Below, one piece after another: positions 6,675 through 64,000 of a DNA stretch of 64,000 nucleotides. The translations under genes were made by a program, and so were the position numbers. The notes beneath the pieces are model-generated. The model was not told where the DNA came from. It saw nothing but the letters and a program-made list of their open reading frames with translations, and ran no database searches. How positions within the stretch are numbered: position 1 is the stretch's first letter; each line of letters begins with the position of its first letter. This DNA comes from Lachnospiraceae bacterium (GTDB lineage Bacteria > Bacillota > Clostridia > Lachnospirales > Lachnospiraceae): the NCBI GenBank assembly GCA_017416465.1, contig JAFQCK010000025.1, forward strand, positions 1 to 64,000. The letters run 5' to 3'.

Positions 6675-8532
6675 ATCGAGTAGGAGGGAAAATTAATTAA
6701 ATTTTCCCGACCTCTCACACCACCGTGCGTACCGTTCGGTACACGGCGGTTCAATCAACTTAACAAGTAACACACCTTTCGGTGTAGTAATCTAACATTG
6801 AGACTAATCCAAATGAGGTTAGTCTCTTTGTGGTTATAGCCTTATGTATCCATCCATTGTGAGCAAGTCTGGCATATTTGTTTCCACAGTATGCGATTTT
6901 AAATGCTGCCCACCTTGGTACATCCAGCTTCATAAGGTTCTTTGCTCTGTTCTGTGGGGTTTTCCAATGTTTCCAAATGCACATACGAAGTCGGCATCTG
7001 ATGTTTCCATCAAGCTCTTTACAGAGAGTTTTCATACTACCTATCTTGAAATAGTTAATCCATCCTCTGATAAGTTGGTTCAATTTCTCAATCTTGTAGC
7101 TGTTACTTACTCCCCAACTACGTTTTGTGAGTTCTTTCATCCTTTTCTTGAACTTCGATACAGATTTTGCATGTGGTTTTGCCTTAAATTGGTGCGCTTT
7201 TATATCAAAGTAAAATCCAAAACCAAGGTATTTTAGTCCACTTGGTCTATCTACTTTGCTTTTTGTCATATTTACCTTAAGCCCTAGTCTCTCTTCTATA
7301 AATCGTGTGATGTTTCTCATCACTCGATTAGCAGACATTTCACTTCCGACCATAATGATACAATCATCTGCATATCGGACAAAGTTTAACCCTCTCTTTT
7401 GCATTTCCTTATCAAGTTCATTTAGCATGATATTTGCCAATAGTGGCGATAAATTTCCGCCTTGTGGTGTTCCCACAATAGAATCCTCGTATTCATCATC
7501 AATCATAATTCCACTGACTAGGTACTTCCTTATGATAGAAATTACATCTCCATATTTAATTGTTCTACCAATAATAGTCATCAGTTTATCATGATTTACT
7601 GTATCAAAGAACTTTTCCAAGTCAATATCTACAATCCAATCATTGCCATCATTCATCATATCAAGTGCTGTTAGTATTGCTTGCTGTGCACATCTATTCG
7701 GTCTAAATCCATAACTATGGTCATGGAACTGTTCCTCGTAGATTGGTGTTAGTACCTGCGCTATAGCTTGCTGTATAAATCTGTCTGTTACTGTTGGTAC
7801 TCCTAGGTTTCTGACACCACCATCGGGCTTTGGTATCTCCACTCTTCGTACTGGCTGAGGTTTATATTTTCTTGTCCTCAGCTTTTCCTTAATAATTTCG
7901 CCGTTCTTTACAAGATGTTCTTTGAGTTCGGTGTACTTCATCTCGTCCACTCCTTCTGCACCTTTGTTTCGTACGACTTGCAGATATGCTCTGTTGAGAT
8001 TATCGCTAGATAGTATCTGCTCCATTAGACTACTTGTGTCCATGCGTTCTTTCCTTTCCGTCTCGCTTGATTTGACCACCTTTTACCCGATTGGTTTCGG
8101 CAGATGTTGTCATTTCTGCAATACGAGACATACTCAAACTTATTGATTGTTCGCCCCTTTGCTCCATTTCCATTACAGAAACTTCTTCACTACTATGGGC
8201 TCGGCTGACTTCTCACAGTTCGTTGTTACTAGGCTAATGGTACCTCTGTGAGACCTCCACGCTTAAGGTGCACGCTCTTTCCCTCCATATATCCGCCACA
8301 TCTACTCTGCTACTACAAATGTGATAGTTATCAGGCTTCATTGTTCTATGCCAACTTATCTCTCGTAGCCTAGCCTTATATGTGATTTCTGTCCGTCGGA
8401 CCAGAGGTTTGCTTACAACTTCCTTCAGATTTCATCTCACGATGAACACCCTTGCTGTTCAGCTATACACTTCCCACTATCTGGGCGTGTTCGGGACTTT
8501 CACCCGTTAGAGCGCGCCCATGGCGCGCAAAC
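6675..8532 (-). mobile_element. Complete group IIC intron
   Basis: 1858 nt on the minus strand. The 5' end reads GTTTGCGCGCCATGGGCGCG followed by CTCTAACGGGTGAAAGTCCC, matching the start of the Oceanobacillus iheyensis IIC intron in order and spacing. Domain I/II sequence fills 8044-8532. Near the 3' end, domain V (AACCGCCGTGTACCGAACGG then TACGCACGGTGGTGTGAGAG) is nearly identical to that ribozyme, and domain VI ends in CTACTCGAT at 6675. A maturase is encoded inside. The 5' end lies 2 nt after a perfect 17-bp terminator stem, the known target preference of IIC introns. All parts look intact. Confidence 0.92.
6760..8043 (-). CDS. ltrA: Group II intron-encoded reverse transcriptase/maturase
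   Basis: 427 residues from the ATG at 8043, chosen for the GGAAAGGA upstream; an in-frame GTG at 8079 would add 12 residues. Reverse-transcriptase blocks are all visible: SYGFRPNRCAQQAI, DIDLEKFFDTVNHDKL, GTPQGGNLSPLLANI and the catalytic FVRYADDCIIM. The maturase (X) domain follows (LNQLIRGWINYFKIGSM). There is no HNH endonuclease at the C-terminus, and the length of about 420 fits IIC proteins. It splices the intron RNA and copies it into new sites. Confidence 0.95.
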   Translation of the reverse strand: MDTSSLMEQILSSDNLNRAYLQVVRNKGAEGVDEMKYTELKEHLVKNGEIIKEKLRTRKYKPQPVRRVEIPKPDGGVRNLGVPTVTDRFIQQAIAQVLTPIYEEQFHDHSYGFRPNRCAQQAILTALDMMNDGNDWIVDIDLEKFFDTVNHDKLMTIIGRTIKYGDVISIIRKYLVSGIMIDDEYEDSIVGTPQGGNLSPLLANIMLNELDKEMQKRGLNFVRYADDCIIMVGSEMSANRVMRNITRFIEERLGLKVNMTKSKVDRPSGLKYLGFGFYFDIKAHQFKAKPHAKSVSKFKKRMKELTKRSWGVSNSYKIEKLNQLIRGWINYFKIGSMKTLCKELDGNIRCRLRMCIWKHWKTPQNRAKNLMKLDVPRWAAFKIAYCGNKYARLAHNGWIHKAITTKRLTSFGLVSMLDYYTERCVTC

Positions 8533-54083: not shown

Positions 54084-54258
54084 AATAATTCATCCTTTCT
54101 TGCATTTAAATTTTTTAGATTATCTAATGCGACTTTAAATTCTGTAAACTCTTTAACTTATATTTTAAATTCATAAGCATATTTAGAATTCGCTGTCGCA
54201 TCTTGTGACTTAATCTTACGAAAAACTTTCTAATCGCGCAAGAAACGGGATGTAGCAG

Positions 54259-54503
54259 CTATGTTACGCTCCGTAACATCCCTTAAAAACCTCTTTATTA
54301 CAAGTTTTTGTATTTCTGTATTAATTATTTAATACAATATAGCACCCATATTTTTTACTGTCAATCTTTTTTTTATATATTTGTAACTTAATAATTATGT
54401 GTTTATAAAAGACCTTTAATATAAAAGTTCAACATAAAACAGATATAACACCTATGTTACGCTCCGTAACATCTCTTGAAAACGTCTTAATTATAAGCTT
54501 TTT
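54259..54503. repeat. Two copies of a 50-bp hairpin repeat
   Basis: CTATGTTACGCTCCGTAACA followed by TC occurs identically at 54259-54280 and 54452-54473. Each copy holds the stem ATGTTAC/GTAACAT with a GCTCC-type loop. The similarity goes on for about 28 bp (CTT-AAAAC-TCTT-ATTA-AAG-TTTT). In the first copy an outer GGGATGT (54248-54254) can also pair with ACATCCC, competing with the inner stem. Both lie in the 970-bp gap between the XRE gene and rtcB, which otherwise holds only the small ORF at 54710. Confidence 0.65.
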
Positions 54504-54709
54504 TTTAATACCAGTCAAATTATGAGTCTACTAAAAAAAGTTTAAGAAAAGTTTAAGGTTTATATATTTAAAAGTTATTTTTAAAAAATCCCAAAAAATT
54601 ATAATAAGCTATAAAGTCTTTTAATTCATCTGCCGATAAGTCTACCAACGTGATTAAAAATTCACACCAATAAAAGAAACTATTAACCCGATTTGAAAGG
54701 AGGATAATC

Positions 54710-54799
54710 ATGACAACGAATACATTTAAAACAATTAACACTGACAACTTCATATTAGCTACAAAGGTTTTGGTTATCCTTATGCCGACAAATGGGTAA
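54710..54799 (+). CDS. 29-codon ORF in the rtcB leader, possible leader peptide
   Basis: ATG at 54710 preceded by AAAGGAGG at ideal spacing; it encodes MTTNTFKTINTDNFILATKV and nine more residues, then TAA. The Thr/Asn-rich start and hydrophobic end fit no family I know. It lies on the same strand as rtcB, 250 bp upstream, with a short terminator-like hairpin in between. It could be a leader peptide for attenuation or a small toxin-like peptide. Confidence 0.5.
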   Translation: MTTNTFKTINTDNFILATKVLVILMPTNG

Positions 54800-54929
54800 T
54801 CTATATTCTAATCATATGTGTAAAGTAATCAAACGGTATGTTTATAATTCCACATCTCATTACTTTCACACAATTCTCGAAATAGATTTCTCATAAGAAT
54901 AATAATTAAATATATTCCTTACGATAACC

Positions 54930-54955
54930 ACACCTTTAATCAAGGTGTTATTTTT
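54930..54955 (+). terminator. Short terminator-like hairpin before rtcB
   Basis: ACACCTT (54930-54936) pairs with AAGGTGT (54942-54948), and TATTTTTG follows. It lies 97 bp before the rtcB start and downstream of the 29-codon ORF, the position of an attenuator. Confidence 0.5.
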
Positions 54956-55051
54956 GTGCCTAAAAATAATATGGAATTGTTCTGTGTTAAATTGATATGA
55001 ATATTTTTTTAACTTTGAAAACAAAAACCATATCGAAAGGACAAAATTATT

Positions 55052-56200
55052 ATGAAAACTATTGAAGGAATCTATACCAGTGCAAATATTTTCGCAACTT
55101 CAAATGAATTAACAGCAATCGATAATTATGCAATCGCTCAGATACAAATGCTTTGCAACAATGAAGCTTTAAAAGACTGCCTGATTCGTGTTATGCCTGA
55201 CGTTCATCCGGGCATTGTAGGAACAATTGGACTTACTATGACAATTGGTAAAAAATTAATGCCTAATCTTATAGGCATCGATATCGGCTGTGGAATGACT
55301 TTATCAAAATTAAAATGTAAAAAAATTGAATTTCAAAAGCTTGATGCTGTAATCAGAGAAAATGTTCCATCCGGATTTTCAATCAGAAATAAAATTCATC
55401 ACCTTGCTAATGAGTTTGATTTCACAAGACTTAAATGCTACAAACACATTCGTGAAGAAAAAGCATTGCTTAGTCTTGGGACTTTGGGTGGTGGAAATCA
55501 TTTTATAGAAGCAGATAAAGATGAAGAAGGATATCTCTACGTTGTTATTCACAGTGGCAGCCGTAACCTCGGCAAAGAAGTTACTGAATATTATTTAAAT
55601 GAAGGTCAAAAAGAATTAAAAGACAAAGATATAAATATTCCTTATGAACTTACCTATCTTGAAGGTGAAATTTTAAAGGATTATTTACACGATATTCAAG
55701 TTTCTCAGGAATTTGCATCACTTAACAGAGAAATCATTCTTGCTGAATTAGTAAAAGGAATGAAATGGAAAGTAATTGAGAGCTATAAGTGTATCCATAA
55801 CTATATAGACAATTCTAAAGAAACAATTGCTGCTTTCCATTCACCAATACTTAGAAAAGGTGCAATTTCTGCAAAGCTTAATGAAAAAGTTATTATTCCA
55901 ATTAATATGCGTGATGGAATAATTCTTGGCACAGGTTTGGGAAATACCAACTGGAACTGTTCTGCACCACATGGTTCAGGCAGACTTATGAAACGCGAAG
56001 ATATTAAATCGAACTACACAGTGTCTGCTTACAAATCAGAAATGAAAGGAATCTATTCATCTTGCATTAACAAGTATACTTTAGATGAAGCACCTTTTGC
56101 TTACAGACGAATAGATGAAATTGTATCTGCGATTAAGGATACTGTAATTATTGATAACATTATTAAACCGATTTATAACTATAAAGCCGGTGGAAATTAA
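55052..56200 (+). CDS. rtcB: RNA 3'-phosphate/5'-OH ligase RtcB
   Basis: 382 residues, the shorter bacterial type. Metal and GTP ligands are visible: VMPDVHPGIVGTIG, GIDIGCGM (the conserved cysteine), GTLGGGNHFIE, VIHSGSRNLGK, and the guanylated histidine in NCSAPHGSGRLMKR. The enzyme joins RNA ends with 2',3'-cyclic phosphate or 3'-phosphate to 5'-OH ends. AAAGGA precedes the ATG. It begins a tight operon that ends with prfH (gaps of 30, 19 and 28 bp). PrfH and this RtcB type are reported to rescue and reseal ribosomes whose decoding-centre RNA has been cut. Confidence 0.95.
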   Translation: MKTIEGIYTSANIFATSNELTAIDNYAIAQIQMLCNNEALKDCLIRVMPDVHPGIVGTIGLTMTIGKKLMPNLIGIDIGCGMTLSKLKCKKIEFQKLDAVIRENVPSGFSIRNKIHHLANEFDFTRLKCYKHIREEKALLSLGTLGGGNHFIEADKDEEGYLYVVIHSGSRNLGKEVTEYYLNEGQKELKDKDINIPYELTYLEGEILKDYLHDIQVSQEFASLNREIILAELVKGMKWKVIESYKCIHNYIDNSKETIAAFHSPILRKGAISAKLNEKVIIPINMRDGIILGTGLGNTNWNCSAPHGSGRLMKREDIKSNYTVSAYKSEMKGIYSSCINKYTLDEAPFAYRRIDEIVSAIKDTVIIDNIIKPIYNYKAGGN

Positions 56201-56230
56201 TAGTAATATATTTTACGAAAGGATTATTTT

Positions 56231-57292
56231 ATGAATTTACCAATTACAATAAATCAAAATGAATTATTAGATATTTTATTAAATATTGCAATGGTAAGAC
56301 CTGTATTTATCTGGGGCGCACCCGGAATTGGAAAATCTGCATTAGTTGAAACATTTGCAAATGATATTGGTCTTCCATGCGTATCACTTCTTGGCAGTCA
56401 GCTTGCACCGGAAGATATCATCGGTATTCCACAGATTAAAGATGATGTATCCGTATTTCTTCCACCTAAAATGATTGCCAGAAAAGAACCTTATGTATTA
56501 TTTCTTGATGAATTAAATGCCTGTTCGCAGGAGGTTCAAAAAGCATTCTACAGTTTAATTCACGAAAGAAGAATCGGTGAATATCATCTTCCTGAAGGAA
56601 GTATTATCATTGGTGCAGGTAATCGCGCCTGCGACAGTGCAATTGTAAAAACAATGTCTTCTGCCTTAATCAACAGAATGTTTCATGTTGAGTTAAAAGC
56701 AGATTCAAGACAGTGGATTAAATGGGCAGAAGAAAACAATTTACATCCATGGGTTATCGATTACATAATCAATCGACCTGACCATTTATTTGCTGAAGCA
56801 CCAAAAACTGAAGAACCTTTTTCAACTCCCCGTTCGTGGCATATGCTTAGTGACTCATTAAAAGAATTTAATGCCGGAACAAAAGAAATAGATACTAACA
56901 TTTTAAAAACACTTTGTTATGCCTGCTTAACTCCATCACACGCAGGAATGTTTATGGCATATACAAAAAACATAAAAAATAAGGATATGCTTGAAAAAAT
57001 AATATCCAAAGAAGCTAAATGGCCGGATGCTCCAAAAGACAGAGATATATTATATTTTCTTGCTCAATCTTTTCGTGCCAGACTTATACAGGATTTACCA
57101 AAAAATAAACAGGATATAAGCGGAAGTATGCTTACATTCGTATATCGTGCAAAAGCAATGATAAAAGAACTTTCTTCTATTAACTTTGAACTTGCACAGA
57201 TGACCGTAGGAAGTGATAATACCGAAGCCTTGCCGGATTGGTTTATGGTTGAGATTATCAGAGACCTTCCAAGACTTGTTGAACAAAAATAA
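56231..57292 (+). CDS. MoxR-type AAA+ ATPase
   Basis: 353 residues. Walker A is WGAPGIGKSALVETFA, Walker B VLFLDELNACS, sensor 1 IIIGAGNRACD, and the arginine finger region is in SSALINRMFHVEL. The C-terminal lid runs from about 200. MoxR ATPases usually work with VWA-domain proteins, and one is encoded 19 bp downstream. The pair may remodel or load a substrate, here perhaps the damaged ribosome or the RNA ligase; this role is inferred only from the operon. Confidence 0.92.
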   Translation: MNLPITINQNELLDILLNIAMVRPVFIWGAPGIGKSALVETFANDIGLPCVSLLGSQLAPEDIIGIPQIKDDVSVFLPPKMIARKEPYVLFLDELNACSQEVQKAFYSLIHERRIGEYHLPEGSIIIGAGNRACDSAIVKTMSSALINRMFHVELKADSRQWIKWAEENNLHPWVIDYIINRPDHLFAEAPKTEEPFSTPRSWHMLSDSLKEFNAGTKEIDTNILKTLCYACLTPSHAGMFMAYTKNIKNKDMLEKIISKEAKWPDAPKDRDILYFLAQSFRARLIQDLPKNKQDISGSMLTFVYRAKAMIKELSSINFELAQMTVGSDNTEALPDWFMVEIIRDLPRLVEQK

Positions 57293-57311
57293 AGGAGAGT
57301 GAATTATATAA

Positions 57312-59195
57312 ATGCCTAGATTAGAAGATAAATATTATTGGCGTGCAGATGATATTCCGCAAAAGCTACAACCTTTTTATCAAGGCTACAGTAAAGTCTC
57401 AGGACACAAGCTATTAGGCGAACTAAGTGGAACAGTGTATATGAAATCTAATCGTGAATACGGACATTACGGCATAGCTACTGTAGATAAATATGGCAAA
57501 ATTCATGTGAATCCGTATATTCAAATAACATCAGATGAGTGGGCATATGTCCTTGCACATTGCCTTCTACATCTCGCCTTCGGACATTTTGATGATGCTA
57601 AAATTCCAAAAGATGATTTTAACAATTTTAACTCTGAACTTTGGAACAAAGCCTGTGATATTTATATTACACGCTTTTTATATGACATAGATTTTGGAAC
57701 ACCTTTAACAGATGACCCAGCTGATTTTTATTCTATAAAGTTAAATGATGAAGCAAAAATATATGAACATCTTGTATATTTAAACGAAAATGTTTCAGAC
57801 AACAGTGTTTTGAATAAGAGTGATTTAAATAAAAAAAGTTCATACAGTATCTACGGAACTAACGGAGACCAGAAAGATATGCTTGGACTTGACAAACCCA
57901 TTGTATATAAAAATGGCGAACATAATCAATTTATAGAAGATTTTTCTCTAGCGATTAACCGTTCTGTATCAAACGCAGTTCACTTTGCTGGAGGATATGA
58001 TAACTTCAAAGAAGATTCTGTTATAAAAAAGGCTTCTAACTGGTTTCTTACACATTATCCCCTACTCGGTGGCCTTGCATCTTCATTTAAAATTATTGAA
58101 AATCCTGATATGTGTTACAAATATGAAATACACATCGCAGCCGTTGATATTTCTGCGGGTGAAATTTATGTAAATACTTCTGCAAATTTAACAGAAGAAG
58201 AATGGAAATTTGTTCTTGCACACGAATATCTTCATGCAGGATTAAGCCATCATAAACGCTGTCTTGGACGTAATAAATATTTATGGAATGTAGCATGTGA
58301 CTATGTAATCAATGATTGGCTAATCGAAATGCAAATCGGAAAAATGCCTGAAGAAGGACTTCTGTTTGATAAAGATTTACATGGTTACTCTGCCGAAGCA
58401 ATCTATGACATTATCATTAAAGAGATGAGAAAATCCAAAAAACATGCCACATTTCGCGGATTTGGTCATGGTGACATTATGACTGATAATGTTAAGGGTT
58501 TTGCTTCAAATATTCACGCCAAAGGAATAACCTTAGATGAATTTTTTAAAAATGCTTTAAAAGAAGGCTTGGATTTCCATAATTCAAATAATCGTGGATA
58601 TCTTCCTGCTGGATTAATTGAAGAAATCAAAGCTTTATCTACTCCACCTATACCTTGGGAAGTGGAGCTTGGAAATTGGTTTGACATAAATTTTCCACCT
58701 CTTGAAAAACACAGAACTTACGCAAGACCGAGCAGAAGACAAGGCGCAACCCCTGATATCCCAAGACCTCGTTATGTTCTGATGGAAGAAGATAAATTAA
58801 GCAGAACATTTGGTGTAGTAATTGACACCTCGGGCTCTATGTCAACAAAGCAAATAGGCTTAGCACTTGGCGCAATCGCAAGTTATGCTGTTTCGAAAGA
58901 TGTTCCTTTAGTTCGTGTAGTATTTTGTGATGCAGACGCTTATGATGCCGGTTATATGACCCCTTATGATGTTGCCGGAAAAGTAAAGATTATCGGACGT
59001 GGTGGAACTATACTTCAACCTGCGATTACATTATTAGAAAAAGCAAAAGATTTTCCAAAAGATGGACCTATACTTATAATAACTGACGGATATATTGAAA
59101 ACAGAATTTCAATTCATATAGAACATGCATATCTTTTACCTAAAGGAAACAAATTACCATTTAATCCTAAAGGTAAAGTATTCTATTTTAAATAA
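57312..59195 (+). CDS. VWA-domain protein with two metallopeptidase-like repeats (DUF2201-like)
   Basis: 627 residues. Two similar halves come first: EWAYVLAHCLLHLAFGHFDD (His83, His87, His92) with LWNKACDIYITRFL, and EWKFVLAHEYLHAGLSHHKR (His304, Glu305, His308, His313) with LWNVACDYVINDWL. The second keeps a full HExxH; in the first the glutamate is cysteine, so it is likely inactive. The C-terminal VWA domain (about 500-627) has the MIDAS motif VIDTSGSMS, with GRGGTILQP and IITDGYIE. AAA+ and VWA partners are known to act together. Confidence 0.9.
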   Translation: MPRLEDKYYWRADDIPQKLQPFYQGYSKVSGHKLLGELSGTVYMKSNREYGHYGIATVDKYGKIHVNPYIQITSDEWAYVLAHCLLHLAFGHFDDAKIPKDDFNNFNSELWNKACDIYITRFLYDIDFGTPLTDDPADFYSIKLNDEAKIYEHLVYLNENVSDNSVLNKSDLNKKSSYSIYGTNGDQKDMLGLDKPIVYKNGEHNQFIEDFSLAINRSVSNAVHFAGGYDNFKEDSVIKKASNWFLTHYPLLGGLASSFKIIENPDMCYKYEIHIAAVDISAGEIYVNTSANLTEEEWKFVLAHEYLHAGLSHHKRCLGRNKYLWNVACDYVINDWLIEMQIGKMPEEGLLFDKDLHGYSAEAIYDIIIKEMRKSKKHATFRGFGHGDIMTDNVKGFASNIHAKGITLDEFFKNALKEGLDFHNSNNRGYLPAGLIEEIKALSTPPIPWEVELGNWFDINFPPLEKHRTYARPSRRQGATPDIPRPRYVLMEEDKLSRTFGVVIDTSGSMSTKQIGLALGAIASYAVSKDVPLVRVVFCDADAYDAGYMTPYDVAGKVKIIGRGGTILQPAITLLEKAKDFPKDGPILIITDGYIENRISIHIEHAYLLPKGNKLPFNPKGKVFYFK

Positions 59196-59223
59196 TAATA
59201 TAAATTGAGGTGATTATTAAATT

Positions 59224-59832
59224 ATGATTATTCAGATAAGCTCAGGTCAAGGACCAGTAGAGTGCGAATTAGCAGTAAAAAAATTGTTAACATCTCTTAT
59301 GGATGAATTTTCAGATATCGAAATATTATCTAAACATGCCTCAAAAACAATGGGCTATTATACTTCTGTACTTTTTGAAACAAAGAACGATTTATCTTTC
59401 TTAGAAGGCAGTATACAGTGGATATGTGAAAGTCCATTAAGAAACGGACATAAAAGAAAAAACTGGTTCGTTGATGTAAGTATAATACCCGAAGTTAAAA
59501 ATATCTGTAATGAACATGATATCTGCCTGAAACAAGATGTTCGTATGGAACGTTTCCACTCAGGTGGCAAAGGTGGACAAAATGTAAATAAAGTTGAAAC
59601 CGGCGTCAGACTTATACATATTCCAACAGGCATCACAGTTACTTCAACTGCTGAGAGAAGCCAGTTACTTAACCGTAAAAATGCTTTAAATAAATTAAAT
59701 ATTATTCTAGAGGAACATTCAAAAAATGCTAAACAGAAACAGATTAATTCTGCTTGGAGGGAGCATACTAAAATTGTACGTGGTAATCCTGTTAGGGTGT
59801 ATAAGGGGATGAGTTTTAGGTTGGTGAAATAA
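59224..59832 (+). CDS. prfH: Peptide chain release factor-like protein PrfH
   Basis: 202 residues. The GGQ motif is in [20 protein letters not shown]. The domains that read the stop codon are absent: there is no PxT/SPF motif, and the N-terminal part is short (residues 1-100, with [20 protein letters not shown]). The C-terminal tail is basic. PrfH releases the peptide from damaged ribosomes without a stop codon, so that RtcB can reseal the cut rRNA. It is the last gene of the operon and is followed by a strong hairpin. Confidence 0.93.
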
Positions 59833-59890
59833 ATATTATATCTACTTTACTTGCACCATCTCTCTATATATAACAATTCTAATAAAAAAG

Positions 59891-59942
59891 ATAGTTTATA
59901 TTCTTGCATAAATTTTATCTTTTTAGTAAGAATATAAACTAT
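59891..59942. terminator. Terminator between prfH and the facing gene
   Basis: A perfect 15-bp stem ATAGTTTATATTCTT/AAGAATATAAACTAT with a 22-nt loop and T-rich flanks, able to act on both strands. Confidence 0.8.
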
Positions 59943-60011
59943 TTTTCTTTTTTATAATCGTTATATTTTATACTGTCGATTTTATAATTATTACATTTAA
60001 ATATTGTAACT

Positions 60012-60659
60012 TTATTTTTCAAAATAAGTTCTTAACTCATCAGACAATTCATTATATAATTCTCCTAATAAGCCTTTTTTTATCTCATAAATACACTCAA
60101 CATATTTCTCTTCTTTAATTTGCTTTTTAAATATAAAAATAATCGTATATTTTTCACTTATAAATTCATCAATAGTTCTTGGAATTAAAGTTACCGGAAA
60201 CGACGTATCTTTAATATTTTTAAATCCTAATGTGGCAATATTTCCATAACCATATGTAAAATCAACATACTGTGATATCTTATCTTTCAAACCAACTTTC
60301 ATATATTTAGCATCTTTTAGTTTAAGAATATCTGCACAACACGAACTTTTTTCATTAACAGTACTACGGCTATGATTTCTTGAAGGCGAACAATCTTGTA
60401 TAGTTATTCCATCTCCCTTGCCTTCATTATACCTTTTACATCTATTATAAAATTCATTTGCATTCAAAGTTTTACTATCAATCCCGAATAAGTGCATAAA
60501 ATTTTTCTTTTCAAAACGACATTGAAACCAAAAATATTCAGAGCTTCTATTTTTAGCAACAAGCAAAAAAGAATTTTCAACTAATTTAGAATATTCAAAC
60601 GCAGCTTTATATATATGCTTTAATAATTCCTTATCATTTAGCCTTTTATTTATAATCAT
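60012..60659 (-). CDS. Possible PBECR4-like RNase-fold protein behind a structured RNA
   Basis: 215 residues, no signal or membrane helix. The block FQCRFEKKNFMHLFGIDSKT followed by NANEFYNRC resembles the FLHLTGV-type core of PBECR4 domains (the barnase/EndoU/colicin/RelE-like RNase fold); I hold this with only moderate confidence. The middle has a Cys/Ser-rich stretch (CSPSRNHSRSTVNEKSSCCA), and the C-terminus is charged. The start ATG at 60659 has GGGGAGTAGAGG, which lies directly behind the T-tract of a strong terminator. That arrangement is the one seen for type III toxin genes. It faces the rtcB-prfH operon. Confidence 0.6.
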   Translation of the reverse strand: MIINKRLNDKELLKHIYKAAFEYSKLVENSFLLVAKNRSSEYFWFQCRFEKKNFMHLFGIDSKTLNANEFYNRCKRYNEGKGDGITIQDCSPSRNHSRSTVNEKSSCCADILKLKDAKYMKVGLKDKISQYVDFTYGYGNIATLGFKNIKDTSFPVTLIPRTIDEFISEKYTIIFIFKKQIKEEKYVECIYEIKKGLLGELYNELSDELRTYFEK

Positions 60660-62949: not shown

Positions 62950-64000
62950 TCACTCCCAAACCTCTAACTCAACCTCAAACCCTTTCTTTCGCGCATACAT
63001 TTCCAACCACTCCATTACCTCTCTATCCGGTTCCTCATTATATTTAAGAGAAGCCTGAATTATTTTTCCTTCATATATTTCTACCGTCACATATGCTTCC
63101 TCTTTGCACTCTGCCTTACGTAAAAACATTATATCTGTATGATTATCTACATAATTATCCAAATAAAACATAAGACAATTATGTTGTACAATAGACTCTA
63201 TAACAAATTCTTCAATATTCTTAGGATATGCTATCCCATACTTTTCATCAGAAAATTCATTATCTTTATTCCTTTTCTCATTAGATTCAAGTAATTTAGA
63301 ATTCCAATATTCTCTTTCTTTTATTAAAACATCGTAAATCCAAGTTACCTTATCCTCAGATATTTCTTCACTTAGCTTTTTTCCTAATTTCCATTCTACA
63401 CATTCCTTTATATTAAAAAATCCAATATAGACATAATACTGTGACGCTATCCAAAAACTTTTCAGCTCCTTATAGTGCTTTCGAAATTTTCTAACAATAT
63501 TTTCATACTCCTCATTATCACAAAGTAATTTATTCATATAGGCACACATAGACTCGTTCCATCTTTTATCAAACAGCCACGAATATCTATTTTGAATAAA
63601 TAATAACTTTTCACGTTTTTCCTCTGTATCAATCAATTTCGTTCCACCCTCACAGTTAATTGCTCTTAACAGACGTATGCTTAACCCTGAAAATATTTCC
63701 GAAGGACTCGAACCAATCAAATTATAATCTTCTATATCCTCTAAATTCGCTGCAAACTCATCTAATCCTGCTTTGTATAATGTTTCCTTAACACTTCCAA
63801 TTTGCATACAATGATGTATCTGTTCAAACATTCTTAATGGCTTGTCAGTTCTAAATTTTAAATTCCATTCCGGAAATTCTAAAGAAAATCTATCATACAA
63901 TTTTCTTACCTGTCTGTGATTATATGCGACACATTCTTCTTTTACAAAACTCGAAAATTTAATTTCCTCTTCATCTGTCCAATAATAGTCTTTTGCAAAA
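62950..64000 (-). CDS. PcfJ-like protein, partial (5' end beyond right edge)
   Basis: The frame is open from 64000 down to the stop at 62950: 349 residues visible, no start seen. An in-frame TTG at 63900 is not needed, because coding continues upstream (YYWTDEEEIKFSSFVKEECV then AYNHRQVRKLYDRF). The C-terminal part has the PcfJ pattern: VIESIVQHNCLMFYLDNYVD, DIMFLRKAECKEEAYVTVEI and KIIQASLKYNEEPDREVMEW. PcfJ proteins are found on conjugative elements and in gut Firmicutes chromosomes; the function is not known. Confidence 0.82.
   Translation of the reverse strand, partial: FAKDYYWTDEEEIKFSSFVKEECVAYNHRQVRKLYDRFSLEFPEWNLKFRTDKPLRMFEQIHHCMQIGSVKETLYKAGLDEFAANLEDIEDYNLIGSSPSEIFSGLSIRLLRAINCEGGTKLIDTEEKREKLLFIQNRYSWLFDKRWNESMCAYMNKLLCDNEEYENIVRKFRKHYKELKSFWIASQYYVYIGFFNIKECVEWKLGKKLSEEISEDKVTWIYDVLIKEREYWNSKLLESNEKRNKDNEFSDEKYGIAYPKNIEEFVIESIVQHNCLMFYLDNYVDNHTDIMFLRKAECKEEAYVTVEIYEGKIIQASLKYNEEPDREVMEWLEMYARKKGFEVELEVWE

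What the first reader, a model, noticed from the sequence alone, without database searches (positions are those of the whole stretch)
55052..59832. RNA-repair operon rtcB - MoxR AAA+ - VWA/metallopeptidase - prfH
RtcB with PrfH is a reported ribosome rescue and repair pair for cleaved decoding-centre rRNA. Here two further genes, an AAA+ ATPase and a VWA protein with HExxH repeats, are locked between them with gaps of 19-30 bp. The simplest reading is a four-part machine in which the ATPase/VWA pair handles the damaged ribosome, removes a bound protein or controls the ligase. This extended version may be undescribed.
Basis: partly seen in the sequence, partly recalled or inferred. Interest (0 to 1): 0.82.

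Follow-up and report, generated by a model that had tools for sequence, protein, structure and literature searches.

The report
Stress-triggered ribosome/RNA repair operon
A four-gene bacterial operon that probably repairs RNA and rescues ribosomes carries a little-studied ATPase/peptidase pair that belongs with the RNA ligase, and both appear to be switched on by the same RNA sensor of faltering protein synthesis.

Summary
The operon is real: rtcB, MoxR-type AAA+ ATPase, HExxH metallopeptidase-VWA protein, prfH; one strand, gaps 30/19/28 nt. Related VWA genes have an rtcB within 6 kb in 26 of 62 loci, in several gene orders. In 299 family genomes all 14 with the long VWA protein encode RtcB, against 74 of 285 others (p=2e-8); genomes with only shorter DUF2201 relatives show no such link. 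PrfH is a separate, optional partner of the same RtcB clade (2 of 14 VWA genomes, p=0.12), so "four-part machine" is only partly right. New here: a leader-peptide/terminator element before rtcB (54699-54956). A covariance model built only from rtcB-first leaders, run over 85 loci, gave 31 hits at E<=1, 30 upstream of rtcB or moxR, six before moxR-vwa with no rtcB in the stretch held; one genome has it before both, apart. Not every operon has it: clear hits in 6 of 14 VWA genomes. Likely reading: one regulon induced when ribosomes slow in the leader; RtcB reseals RNA, PrfH releases peptidyl-tRNA, MoxR-VWA removes a blocking protein. That last target is inferred; RtcB activation is the main rival. 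I found neither element nor pairing in the searchable literature; two key sources were unreadable.

The parts
54699..54710 (+). Shine-Dalgarno of the leader ORF and 5' arm of helix P1 (GAGGATAATCA, 54700-54710)
   Evidence: pairs with 54771-54781; own-versus-other permutation p=5e-5 over 24 leaders; covariation score 0.192 against 0.139 shuffled
54710..54799 (+). leader ORF, 29 codons, Asn/Thr-rich first half, TKVLVIL motif
   Evidence: similar leaders before rtcB or moxR in many related loci
54763..54768 (+). antiterminator core AAAGGT, complementary to ACCTTT (54932-54937) in the terminator
   Evidence: own-versus-other permutation p=5e-5 over 18 leaders chosen by eye from 29
54771..54781 (+). 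3' arm of helix P1 (TGGTTATCCTT), pairs with the leader's Shine-Dalgarno
54930..54956 (+). Rho-independent terminator-like hairpin and T-rich tail, 103 nt before rtcB
55052..56200 (+). rtcB, RNA ligase; D77, C80, H150, H167, H249, H307 at least 97% conserved in 37 clade rows
56231..57292 (+). moxR, AAA+ ATPase with Walker A GAPGIGKS, Walker B FLDE, GNR
57312..59195 (+). vwa: degenerate zincin-like repeat, intact HExxH metallopeptidase repeat (H304-H313, 58221-58250), VWA domain with complete MIDAS (D505-S507-S509, T566, D592)
59224..59832 (+). prfH, release-factor-like peptidyl-tRNA hydrolase with GGQ
59881..59952 (+). 32-nt inverted repeat with T-run after prfH, likely end of the operon (inference)
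   Evidence: the terminator scan did not list it

Best explanation
This is a translation-stress-induced RNA-repair operon. Shown by comparison: the long MoxR-VWA pair is linked to RtcB (gene order, co-occurrence), and many such pairs share a leader-peptide element with rtcB operons even when the two are encoded apart. Inferred, about 0.7: a ribosome that starts the leader but slows in its Asn/Thr-rich first half keeps the leader's Shine-Dalgarno covered, which frees the AGAGGY-type codons to pair with the 5' arm of the terminator, so transcription reads on; normal translation to the leader stop masks these codons and the terminator forms. Established for relatives in E. coli: PrfH releases the peptide from ribosomes cut by colicin E3 and RtcB2 ligates the damaged 16S rRNA. 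Inferred, about 0.4: MoxR forms an AAA+ ring, VWA grips a target through its MIDAS, and ATP-driven remodelling plus HExxH proteolysis removes a protein that blocks the break (a stuck nuclease, ribosomal protein or factor), so RtcB can reach the ends. PrfH and MoxR-VWA are alternative or complementary clearing modules added to one ligase.
For: Adjacency: RtcB within 6 kb in 26 of 62 full-length VWA loci, 19 of the 37 with longer flanks, all 19 same strand, in several orders. Co-occurrence in 299 genomes: RtcB in 14 of 14 long-VWA genomes against 74 of 285, p=1.7e-8; genomes with other DUF2201_N only, 40 of 137 against 48 of 162. VWA with class D or A RtcB 13 of 14 against 25 of 285, p=3.7e-12. 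RtcB tree: a 37-row clade (100/100), 33 rows next to VWA and/or PrfH (rows were partly chosen for that linkage). Leader: peptide profile, the next 15 of 15 non-training peptides lie upstream of rtcB/moxR (background 6.2%). Hold-out covariance model: 30 of 31 hits at E<=1 upstream of rtcB/moxR, 11 moxR-first at E<1e-4. In 80 genomes all 17 hits at E<1e-4 precede rtcB or moxR. Pairing tests p=5e-5 each. RNA-related neighbours in some loci: Tpt1/KptA, ADP-ribosylglycohydrolase, PARG, metallophosphoesterases. Relic of the same order, rtcB-(moxR)-(vwa)-prfH, in G112.
Against: 19 of 26 loci of the RtcB clade have no VWA beside them, so the ligase does not need it. 15 of 39 searched genomes with the VWA family but no clear RtcB at the locus show no RtcB at all, among them Butyrivibrio proteoclasticus P18 (4.2 Mb) with an intact pair. 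In cyanobacterial, actinobacterial, deinococcal and enterobacterial loci no rtcB was found near the pair. The element is not universal: clear hits (E<1e-4) in 6 of 14 long-VWA genomes; no leader candidate in the 500 nt before the first gene in L014, L017 and L053. Folding with a ribosome early or late behaves as predicted in only 13 of 18 leaders (p=0.027); L008, L077 and L161 show no switch, L213 and L026 go the wrong way. Two of five covariation measures of P1 do not exceed shuffles. Four of 28 leaders lack the UCC element. No structure prediction, no experiment.
Confidence: 0.55

Rival explanations
1. MoxR-VWA is an RtcB activase: it reloads metal into RtcB, or frees RtcB stuck in a dead-end state, like NorQD (metal insertion) or CbbQO (rubisco activase), filling the place of Archease (Archease's role is recalled).
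For: The constant partner is RtcB, not PrfH; a divergent RtcB stands beside the pair in an alphaproteobacterium. Archease was found in 0 of 14 long-VWA genomes. MoxR-VWA pairs are known for target remodelling and metal insertion (PMC13036017, passages).
Against: Archease is also missing from 31 of the other 32 genomes searched, so its absence says little. Most RtcBs of the clade have no VWA beside them. An activase needs no intact HExxH site.
Confidence: 0.25
2. MoxR-VWA is an independent stress chaperone/protease (for example phage- or conflict-related) that was swept into rtcB operons by shared mobility and shared regulation, without a joint substrate.
For: The pair stands without rtcB in many loci and other phyla; relatives matching its C-terminal two thirds are common in phages, where a MoxR/metallopeptidase-vWA pair was proposed to serve virion assembly (PMC7824862, passages). 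A PcfJ-like gene lies about 3 kb past the operon.
Against: Genome-level co-occurrence with RtcB also when not adjacent (7 of 7 such genomes, p=1e-4) and the shared leader; no rtcB near any of 80 viral loci.
Confidence: 0.2
3. The leader element is only a remnant carried along by descent from one ancestral rtcB-moxR-vwa operon and no longer regulates.
For: moxR-first operons could arise by loss of rtcB; decayed copies exist (G112, G239, L057). The element is missing or unrecognised in many operons.
Against: Compensating changes in helix P1, own pairings better than swapped ones in both helices, and presence before both separated units of G276.
Confidence: 0.1

Closest known systems
RtcB2-PrfH (RFH-RtcB) ribosome rescue and repair operon
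   Same: rtcB and prfH in one operon with intact motifs; PrfH family score over the cut-off
   Different: RtcB is divergent (114.8 of 271.8 bits on TIGR03073); two extra genes between; leader element. The accessory genes listed in the main text of PMC6514570 (TPR, Pol-beta NTase, zinc-ribbon/charged proteins; passages) do not include MoxR/VWA (its supplement was not readable)
MoxR-VWA chaperone pairs (NorQD, CbbQO, RavA-ViaA) and eukaryotic midasin/Rea1
   Same: adjacent AAA+ of the MoxR type plus VWA protein with complete MIDAS; midasin is the best PDB hit of MoxR by sequence (5e-7)
   Different: VWA protein also carries an intact HExxH metallopeptidase repeat and a degenerate one; partner is an RNA ligase
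MoxR plus metallopeptidase-vWA pair of jumbo and N4-like phages
   Same: same two-gene module (gp24/gp25 in phage N4)
   Different: matches only the C-terminal part (about 27% identity over 56-59% of the protein); no rtcB in any of the 80 viral loci examined
Ribosome-mediated transcription attenuators (trp, his, erm-type leaders; recalled)
   Same: short ORF with Shine-Dalgarno, alternative pairings, Rho-independent terminator
   Different: a sequence-conserved leader shared by rtcB and moxR operons; no Rfam match

Membership tests
RtcB-PrfH repair module | RtcB-family ligase with catalytic residues | tested here: met
   PF01139 198 bits; D77, C80, H150, H167, H249, H307 at least 97% conserved in 37 aligned rows (their catalytic role is recalled)
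RtcB-PrfH repair module | PrfH: GGQ, short form, NCBIfam equivalog | tested here: met
   TIGR03072 175.2 of 166.65; GGQ at 117-119; best PDB hits 9mor and 7sa4, peptide chain release factor H
RtcB-PrfH repair module | RtcB is of the curated prfH-linked subfamily TIGR03073 | tested here: not met
   114.8 of 271.8 bits; in the tree it is far from the E. coli plasmid prfH-linked RtcB L158, whose own place is a long branch
RtcB-PrfH repair module | rescues and reseals ribosomes cut by colicin E3 | not testable with these tools
   reported for E. coli ATCC25922 in PMC9223846 (passages), not for this operon
MoxR-VWA chaperone pairs | MoxR AAA+ directly followed by a VWA protein with MIDAS | tested here: met
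   moxR directly upstream in 56 of 62 loci; DxSxS, T566, D592 invariant in 41 of 41
MoxR-VWA chaperone pairs | hexamer formation and VWA finger in the AAA+ pore | not testable with these tools
   structure prediction was never accepted (queue full, 24 calls)
vWA-MoxR ternary conflict systems | bpMoxR domain and a third VMAP, beta-propeller or FtsH component | tested here: not met
   bpMoxR 24.3 of 27 bits; none of the four operon proteins matches such a component
Ribosome-mediated attenuators | leader ORF with Shine-Dalgarno plus terminator with competing pairings | tested here: met
   that the ORF is translated was not tested
Ribosome-mediated attenuators | ribosome position decides between terminator and antiterminator | tested here: inconclusive
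   in silico 13 of 18 in the expected direction, p=0.027

The most novel reading that the evidence does not exclude
A bacterial counterpart of midasin for damaged translation machinery: the leader senses codon-specific stalling (for instance loss of tRNA-Asn/Thr or a cut decoding centre), and the induced MoxR-VWA peptidase strips or cuts proteins from the broken particle so that RtcB, with or without PrfH, can mend the RNA. The leader defines an RNA-repair regulon that unites separately encoded ligase and remodeller.
Probability: 0.2. Interest if true: 0.9.

Novelty: new variant of a known kind. Interest (0 to 1): 0.74.

Why it matters
How bacteria undo ribosome and tRNA cuts made by rival toxins is known for few systems. 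This adds an ATP-driven peptidase/remodeller to an RNA-ligase pathway, and a leader element that makes the pathway's trigger testable with a simple reporter. If right, one could find unknown repair factors by searching for the leader, and learn whether proteins must be stripped from broken ribosomes before the RNA is sealed.

Tried and rejected
Rejected: (1) obligate four-gene machine. (2) PrfH and MoxR-VWA as strict either/or partners: 9 of 26 clade loci have neither and 2 have both. (3) Membership in vWA-MoxR ternary conflict systems. (4) A PADLOC defence system: only weak AAA matches. (5) MoxR-VWA as Archease substitute argued from absence: Archease is absent almost everywhere in the set. 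(6) The RtcB paralogue on C14 of the same genome as regulon member: no leader hit there. (7) L349 as a new regulon member: no rtcB/moxR near, transposon-like ORF, probably chance. (8) Leader as pure base-composition effect: Asn 24.1% observed against 14.6% expected from positional base content, Lys 6.3% against 13.2%; A-richness as the selected trait is not excluded.

Led nowhere: structure prediction (A1 sent 24 times, queue full), so no fold comparison. Burroughs and Aravind 2016 (gkw722) is not held (one search was a wrong DOI). The supplement of PMC6514570 could not be read. Nine full-text searches for the pairing, the module or the leader (listings, with passages read in some hits) and one for DUF2201 gave no description of either; only the held open library was searched.

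Weak points. L loci and G handles overlap (for instance L005 = G131:C55, L014 = G159:C80, L021 = G052:C41, L053 = G122:C81), so searches are not independent. The 14 'full-length' VWAs include G122 with an internal gap. The p of 8e-19 treats related leaders as independent and is overstated; two of the 15 peptides (L045, L020) are near twins of training rows. The 11 training peptides were picked by eye. In one search I used 18 of the 29 leaders, picked by eye for a plausible terminator; 11 were dropped (L043, L019, L045, L020, L021, L012, L025, L157, L175, L078, L220). In one search, L045 was left out as a twin of L044. R1 and the leader HMM match their training rows by construction; only G183:C28 and G088:C5 of the 17 hits are non-training, and only 50 first-look candidates per genome were scored, so the search is not exhaustive. 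The hold-out, got 85 of the loci then held; L162, L163 and L231 duplicate training loci and L024 is a near twin of one. The PrfH set counts G225 as the thirteenth genome. The 41 loci include L008, L012 and L063, which have an RtcB or pieces of one at the locus. The 40 neighbour proteins scanned were my choice.

A tree with them puts seven (325-412 bits) outside, so the clade counts are now out of 26 and the Fisher tests were rerun; one search holds the older ones.
Full report
OBSERVATION. The four ORFs are present as described. RtcB keeps the ligase motifs, MoxR keeps Walker A/B, PrfH keeps GGQ, and the VWA protein has a complete MIDAS and one intact HExxH repeat. The first repeat is degenerate: its histidines stay, but the window and nearly all of the 21 rows printed lack the Glu. 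A 32-nt inverted repeat with a T-run follows prfH (59881-59952).

HOW WIDESPREAD. One scan of genome contigs with the VWA protein gave 65 loci, mostly titled Lachnospiraceae; also other Clostridia, Selenomonadaceae, Kosakonia/Phytobacter, one alphaproteobacterium and a Synergistaceae fragment. Of these 62 have a full-length VWA; moxR is directly upstream in 56; an RtcB lies within 6 kb in 26, PrfH in 8, both in 7. Among 37 with longer flanks RtcB is near in 19, always on the same strand. Orders differ: rtcB-moxR-vwa, moxR-vwa-rtcB, rtcB-prfH-moxR-vwa, moxR-vwa-rtcB-prfH, rtcB-moxR-vwa-prfH. Shuffled order with constant company is a usual sign of a functional link. The alphaproteobacterial locus L063 has a divergent RtcB (PF01139 110.7 bits) 89 nt upstream of moxR.

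GENOME SAMPLE. In 299 genomes of the family (298 genera) the long VWA is full-length in 14 and a remnant in three (G239, G112, G018) (a 46-bit match in G129 was left out). All 14 encode RtcB, against 74 of the other 285 (Fisher p=1.7e-8); leaving out the seven with RtcB within 5 kb, 7 of 7 (p=1e-4). Genomes with other DUF2201_N proteins only show nothing: 40 of 137. By RtcB class, 13 of 14 have class D (the window's clade) or class A (PF01139 350-381 bits), against 25 of 285 (p=3.7e-12). PrfH occurs in 2 of 14 against 11 of 285 (p=0.12). Class A has a neighbour family weakly matching WYL in 6 of 9 loci looked at and a Band_7 gene in 4 of 9.

RTCB CLADE. A tree of 87 RtcBs puts the window's in a 37-row clade (100/100) whose rows lie next to VWA (17), PrfH (10), both (6) or neither (4), the labels interleaved; the window's own row was cut short and is labelled VWA, and rows were partly chosen for such linkage. 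A second tree of 98 rows keeps all rows of 425 bits or more together (SH-aLRT 100) and puts seven lower-scoring loci outside. Of the 26 clade loci in the 299 genomes (one, G039, placed by score alone), 12 have PrfH, 7 VWA (G025 without a detectable moxR), 2 both and 9 neither. Of the nine, G173 and G276 carry VWA elsewhere. In G112 remnants of moxR and vwa lie between rtcB and prfH: a decayed copy of this gene order.

AGAINST. Of 41 loci without a clear RtcB beside the pair, 39 genomes could be searched; 24 had RtcB somewhere, 15 had none. Some of the 15 are fragments, decayed copies or MAGs, but Butyrivibrio proteoclasticus P18 carries an intact pair. Plasmid-borne relatives in Nostocales, Streptomyces, Miltoncostaea and Deinococcus show no rtcB within about 6 kb. 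In viral contigs 409 relatives were found and the best 80 kept; one matches nearly full length (L247, next to a PrfH remnant), the others only the C-terminal two thirds or less; none of the 80 has rtcB.

OTHER COMPANY. Of 40 neighbour proteins I picked, hits with an RNA or ADP-ribose theme were Tpt1/KptA (L034), ADP-ribosylglycohydrolase (L044; L045 by clustering), microbial PARG (L047), calcineurin-like phosphoesterases (four in L017, one in L055), a PIN protein (L026), a PP-loop protein (L032) and an aminoacyl-tRNA editing domain (L036). The rest were unrelated or unmatched. A 61-93 aa protein with several cysteines and a basic tail lies between rtcB and moxR or beside clade rtcB genes; it resembles the zinc-ribbon/charged accessory of RFH-RtcB operons described in PMC6514570 (passages).

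LEADER ELEMENT. Between the upstream HTH gene and rtcB lies a 29-codon ORF with a Shine-Dalgarno (54710-54799) and a terminator-like hairpin (54930-54948). Similar leaders precede the first gene of many related operons, whether rtcB or moxR. A profile of 11 leader peptides was run against 5517 short Shine-Dalgarno ORFs from the loci held: the next 15 peptides (start variants of training rows not counted), before the first unrelated hit at E=0.95, all lie upstream of rtcB or moxR; 340 of 5452 such ORFs do so at random. Hold-out: a covariance model built only from 14 rtcB-first leaders, run over 85 loci (1.13 Mb), gave 31 hits at E<=1, 30 within about 700 nt upstream of rtcB or moxR (positions held; the exception is L060); 11 are moxR-first with E from 1e-15 to 1e-5, six of them (L005, L019, L025, L173, L175, L178) with no rtcB in the stretch held. 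The seven loci just outside the clade (L239-L245) gave none. Over 80 whole genomes (50 candidates scored in each) model R1 from 22 leaders gave 17 hits at E<1e-4: 12 before class-D rtcB, 5 before moxR; the next was 0.005 and probably chance; the 34 genomes picked as lacking class D or A gave nothing below 0.02. G276 has the element before both its separate rtcB and its separate moxR-vwa. It is not universal: clear hits in 6 of 14 long-VWA genomes, and directly before rtcB in 12 of 26 clade loci. Rfam has no match.

HOW IT MAY SWITCH. The leader's Shine-Dalgarno is complementary to the codons of its VIL/VVL motif (own pairs stronger than swapped pairs, p=5e-5, 24 of 28 leaders; covariation score reached by 1 of 500 shuffles, though the number of pairs changed on both sides and of further pair types is not above shuffles), and its RG/KG codons to the 5' arm of the terminator (p=5e-5, 18 of 29 leaders, chosen by eye). 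Folding with a ribosome early in the leader favours the antiterminator over a ribosome at the end in 13 of 18 (p=0.027), a modest result with clear exceptions. The codons before the motif are 24% Asn and 21% Thr, 6.2 and 5.2 times the level in rtcB, moxR and vwa genes. This looks like a region where slowing is sensed, though an A-rich unstructured spacer would look similar.

MECHANISM. For E. coli the RtcB2-PrfH module protects cells from colicin E3 (PMC9223846, passages). MoxR-VWA pairs remodel targets and insert metals, and Rea1/midasin acts on pre-60S particles (PMC13036017, passages). By sequence the nearest solved relatives are midasin for MoxR (5e-7) and MJ1213 for the peptidase repeat (1e-5). 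I therefore favour removal of a protein that blocks the damaged RNA, with RtcB activation as main rival. The data fix the partner (RtcB) and, through the leader, the class of trigger (translation) better than the substrate.

NOVELTY. No paper found in the held library described MoxR/VWA with RtcB or a leader before rtcB. The 2016 RNA-repair review and the supplement of PMC6514570 could not be read, so an earlier listing of the pairing is possible; a description of the leader element seems less likely.

Noticed in passing
window 60012-60659 (-): PBECR4 (Barnase-EndoU-ColicinE5/D-RelE-like nuclease) gene, convergent with and next to the repair operon; not among the neighbour clusters shared by four or more loci.
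   Followed up: partly
window 62953-63900 (-): PcfJ-like protein of conjugative elements; a protein of the same sequence cluster lies near the operon in L028.
   Followed up: partly
window 54249-54309 and 54442-54502: Two 61-nt direct repeats (85%) holding the palindrome ATGTTACGCTCCGTAACAT, upstream of the leader.
   Followed up: no
window 8154-8446 (-): Group II intron D1-D4 domains.
   Followed up: no
G000 contig C14, L002 1492-2874 (-): Second RtcB of the same genome, longer and outside the clade, with an HTH gene beside it; no leader hit.
   Followed up: partly
L017 6379-8790 and 11905-12645; L120 6379-8786 and 11905-12645: Three calcineurin-like phosphoesterase genes upstream and one downstream of moxR-vwa, possible RNA-end healing enzymes (for L017; L120 by resemblance of its ORFs).
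   Followed up: partly
L161 5612-6140: Remnants of moxR and vwa between rtcB and prfH in genome G112: decayed copy of the four-gene order.
   Followed up: yes
L247 8959-11758: Viral contig with PrfH C-terminal remnant, shortened MoxR and full-length VWA.
   Followed up: partly
L183, L185, L198, L199: Class A RtcB with a gene family whose L183 member is a Band_7/SPFH protein: a separate RNA-repair arrangement of the family.
   Followed up: partly
L013 8712-8921; L028 3661-3849; L231 7336-7521: Small Cys-rich, basic protein next to clade rtcB or between rtcB and moxR.
   Followed up: partly
L239-L245: RtcBs just outside the clade, with neither PrfH nor VWA beside them; one (L242) has the small Cys-rich protein upstream.
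   Followed up: partly
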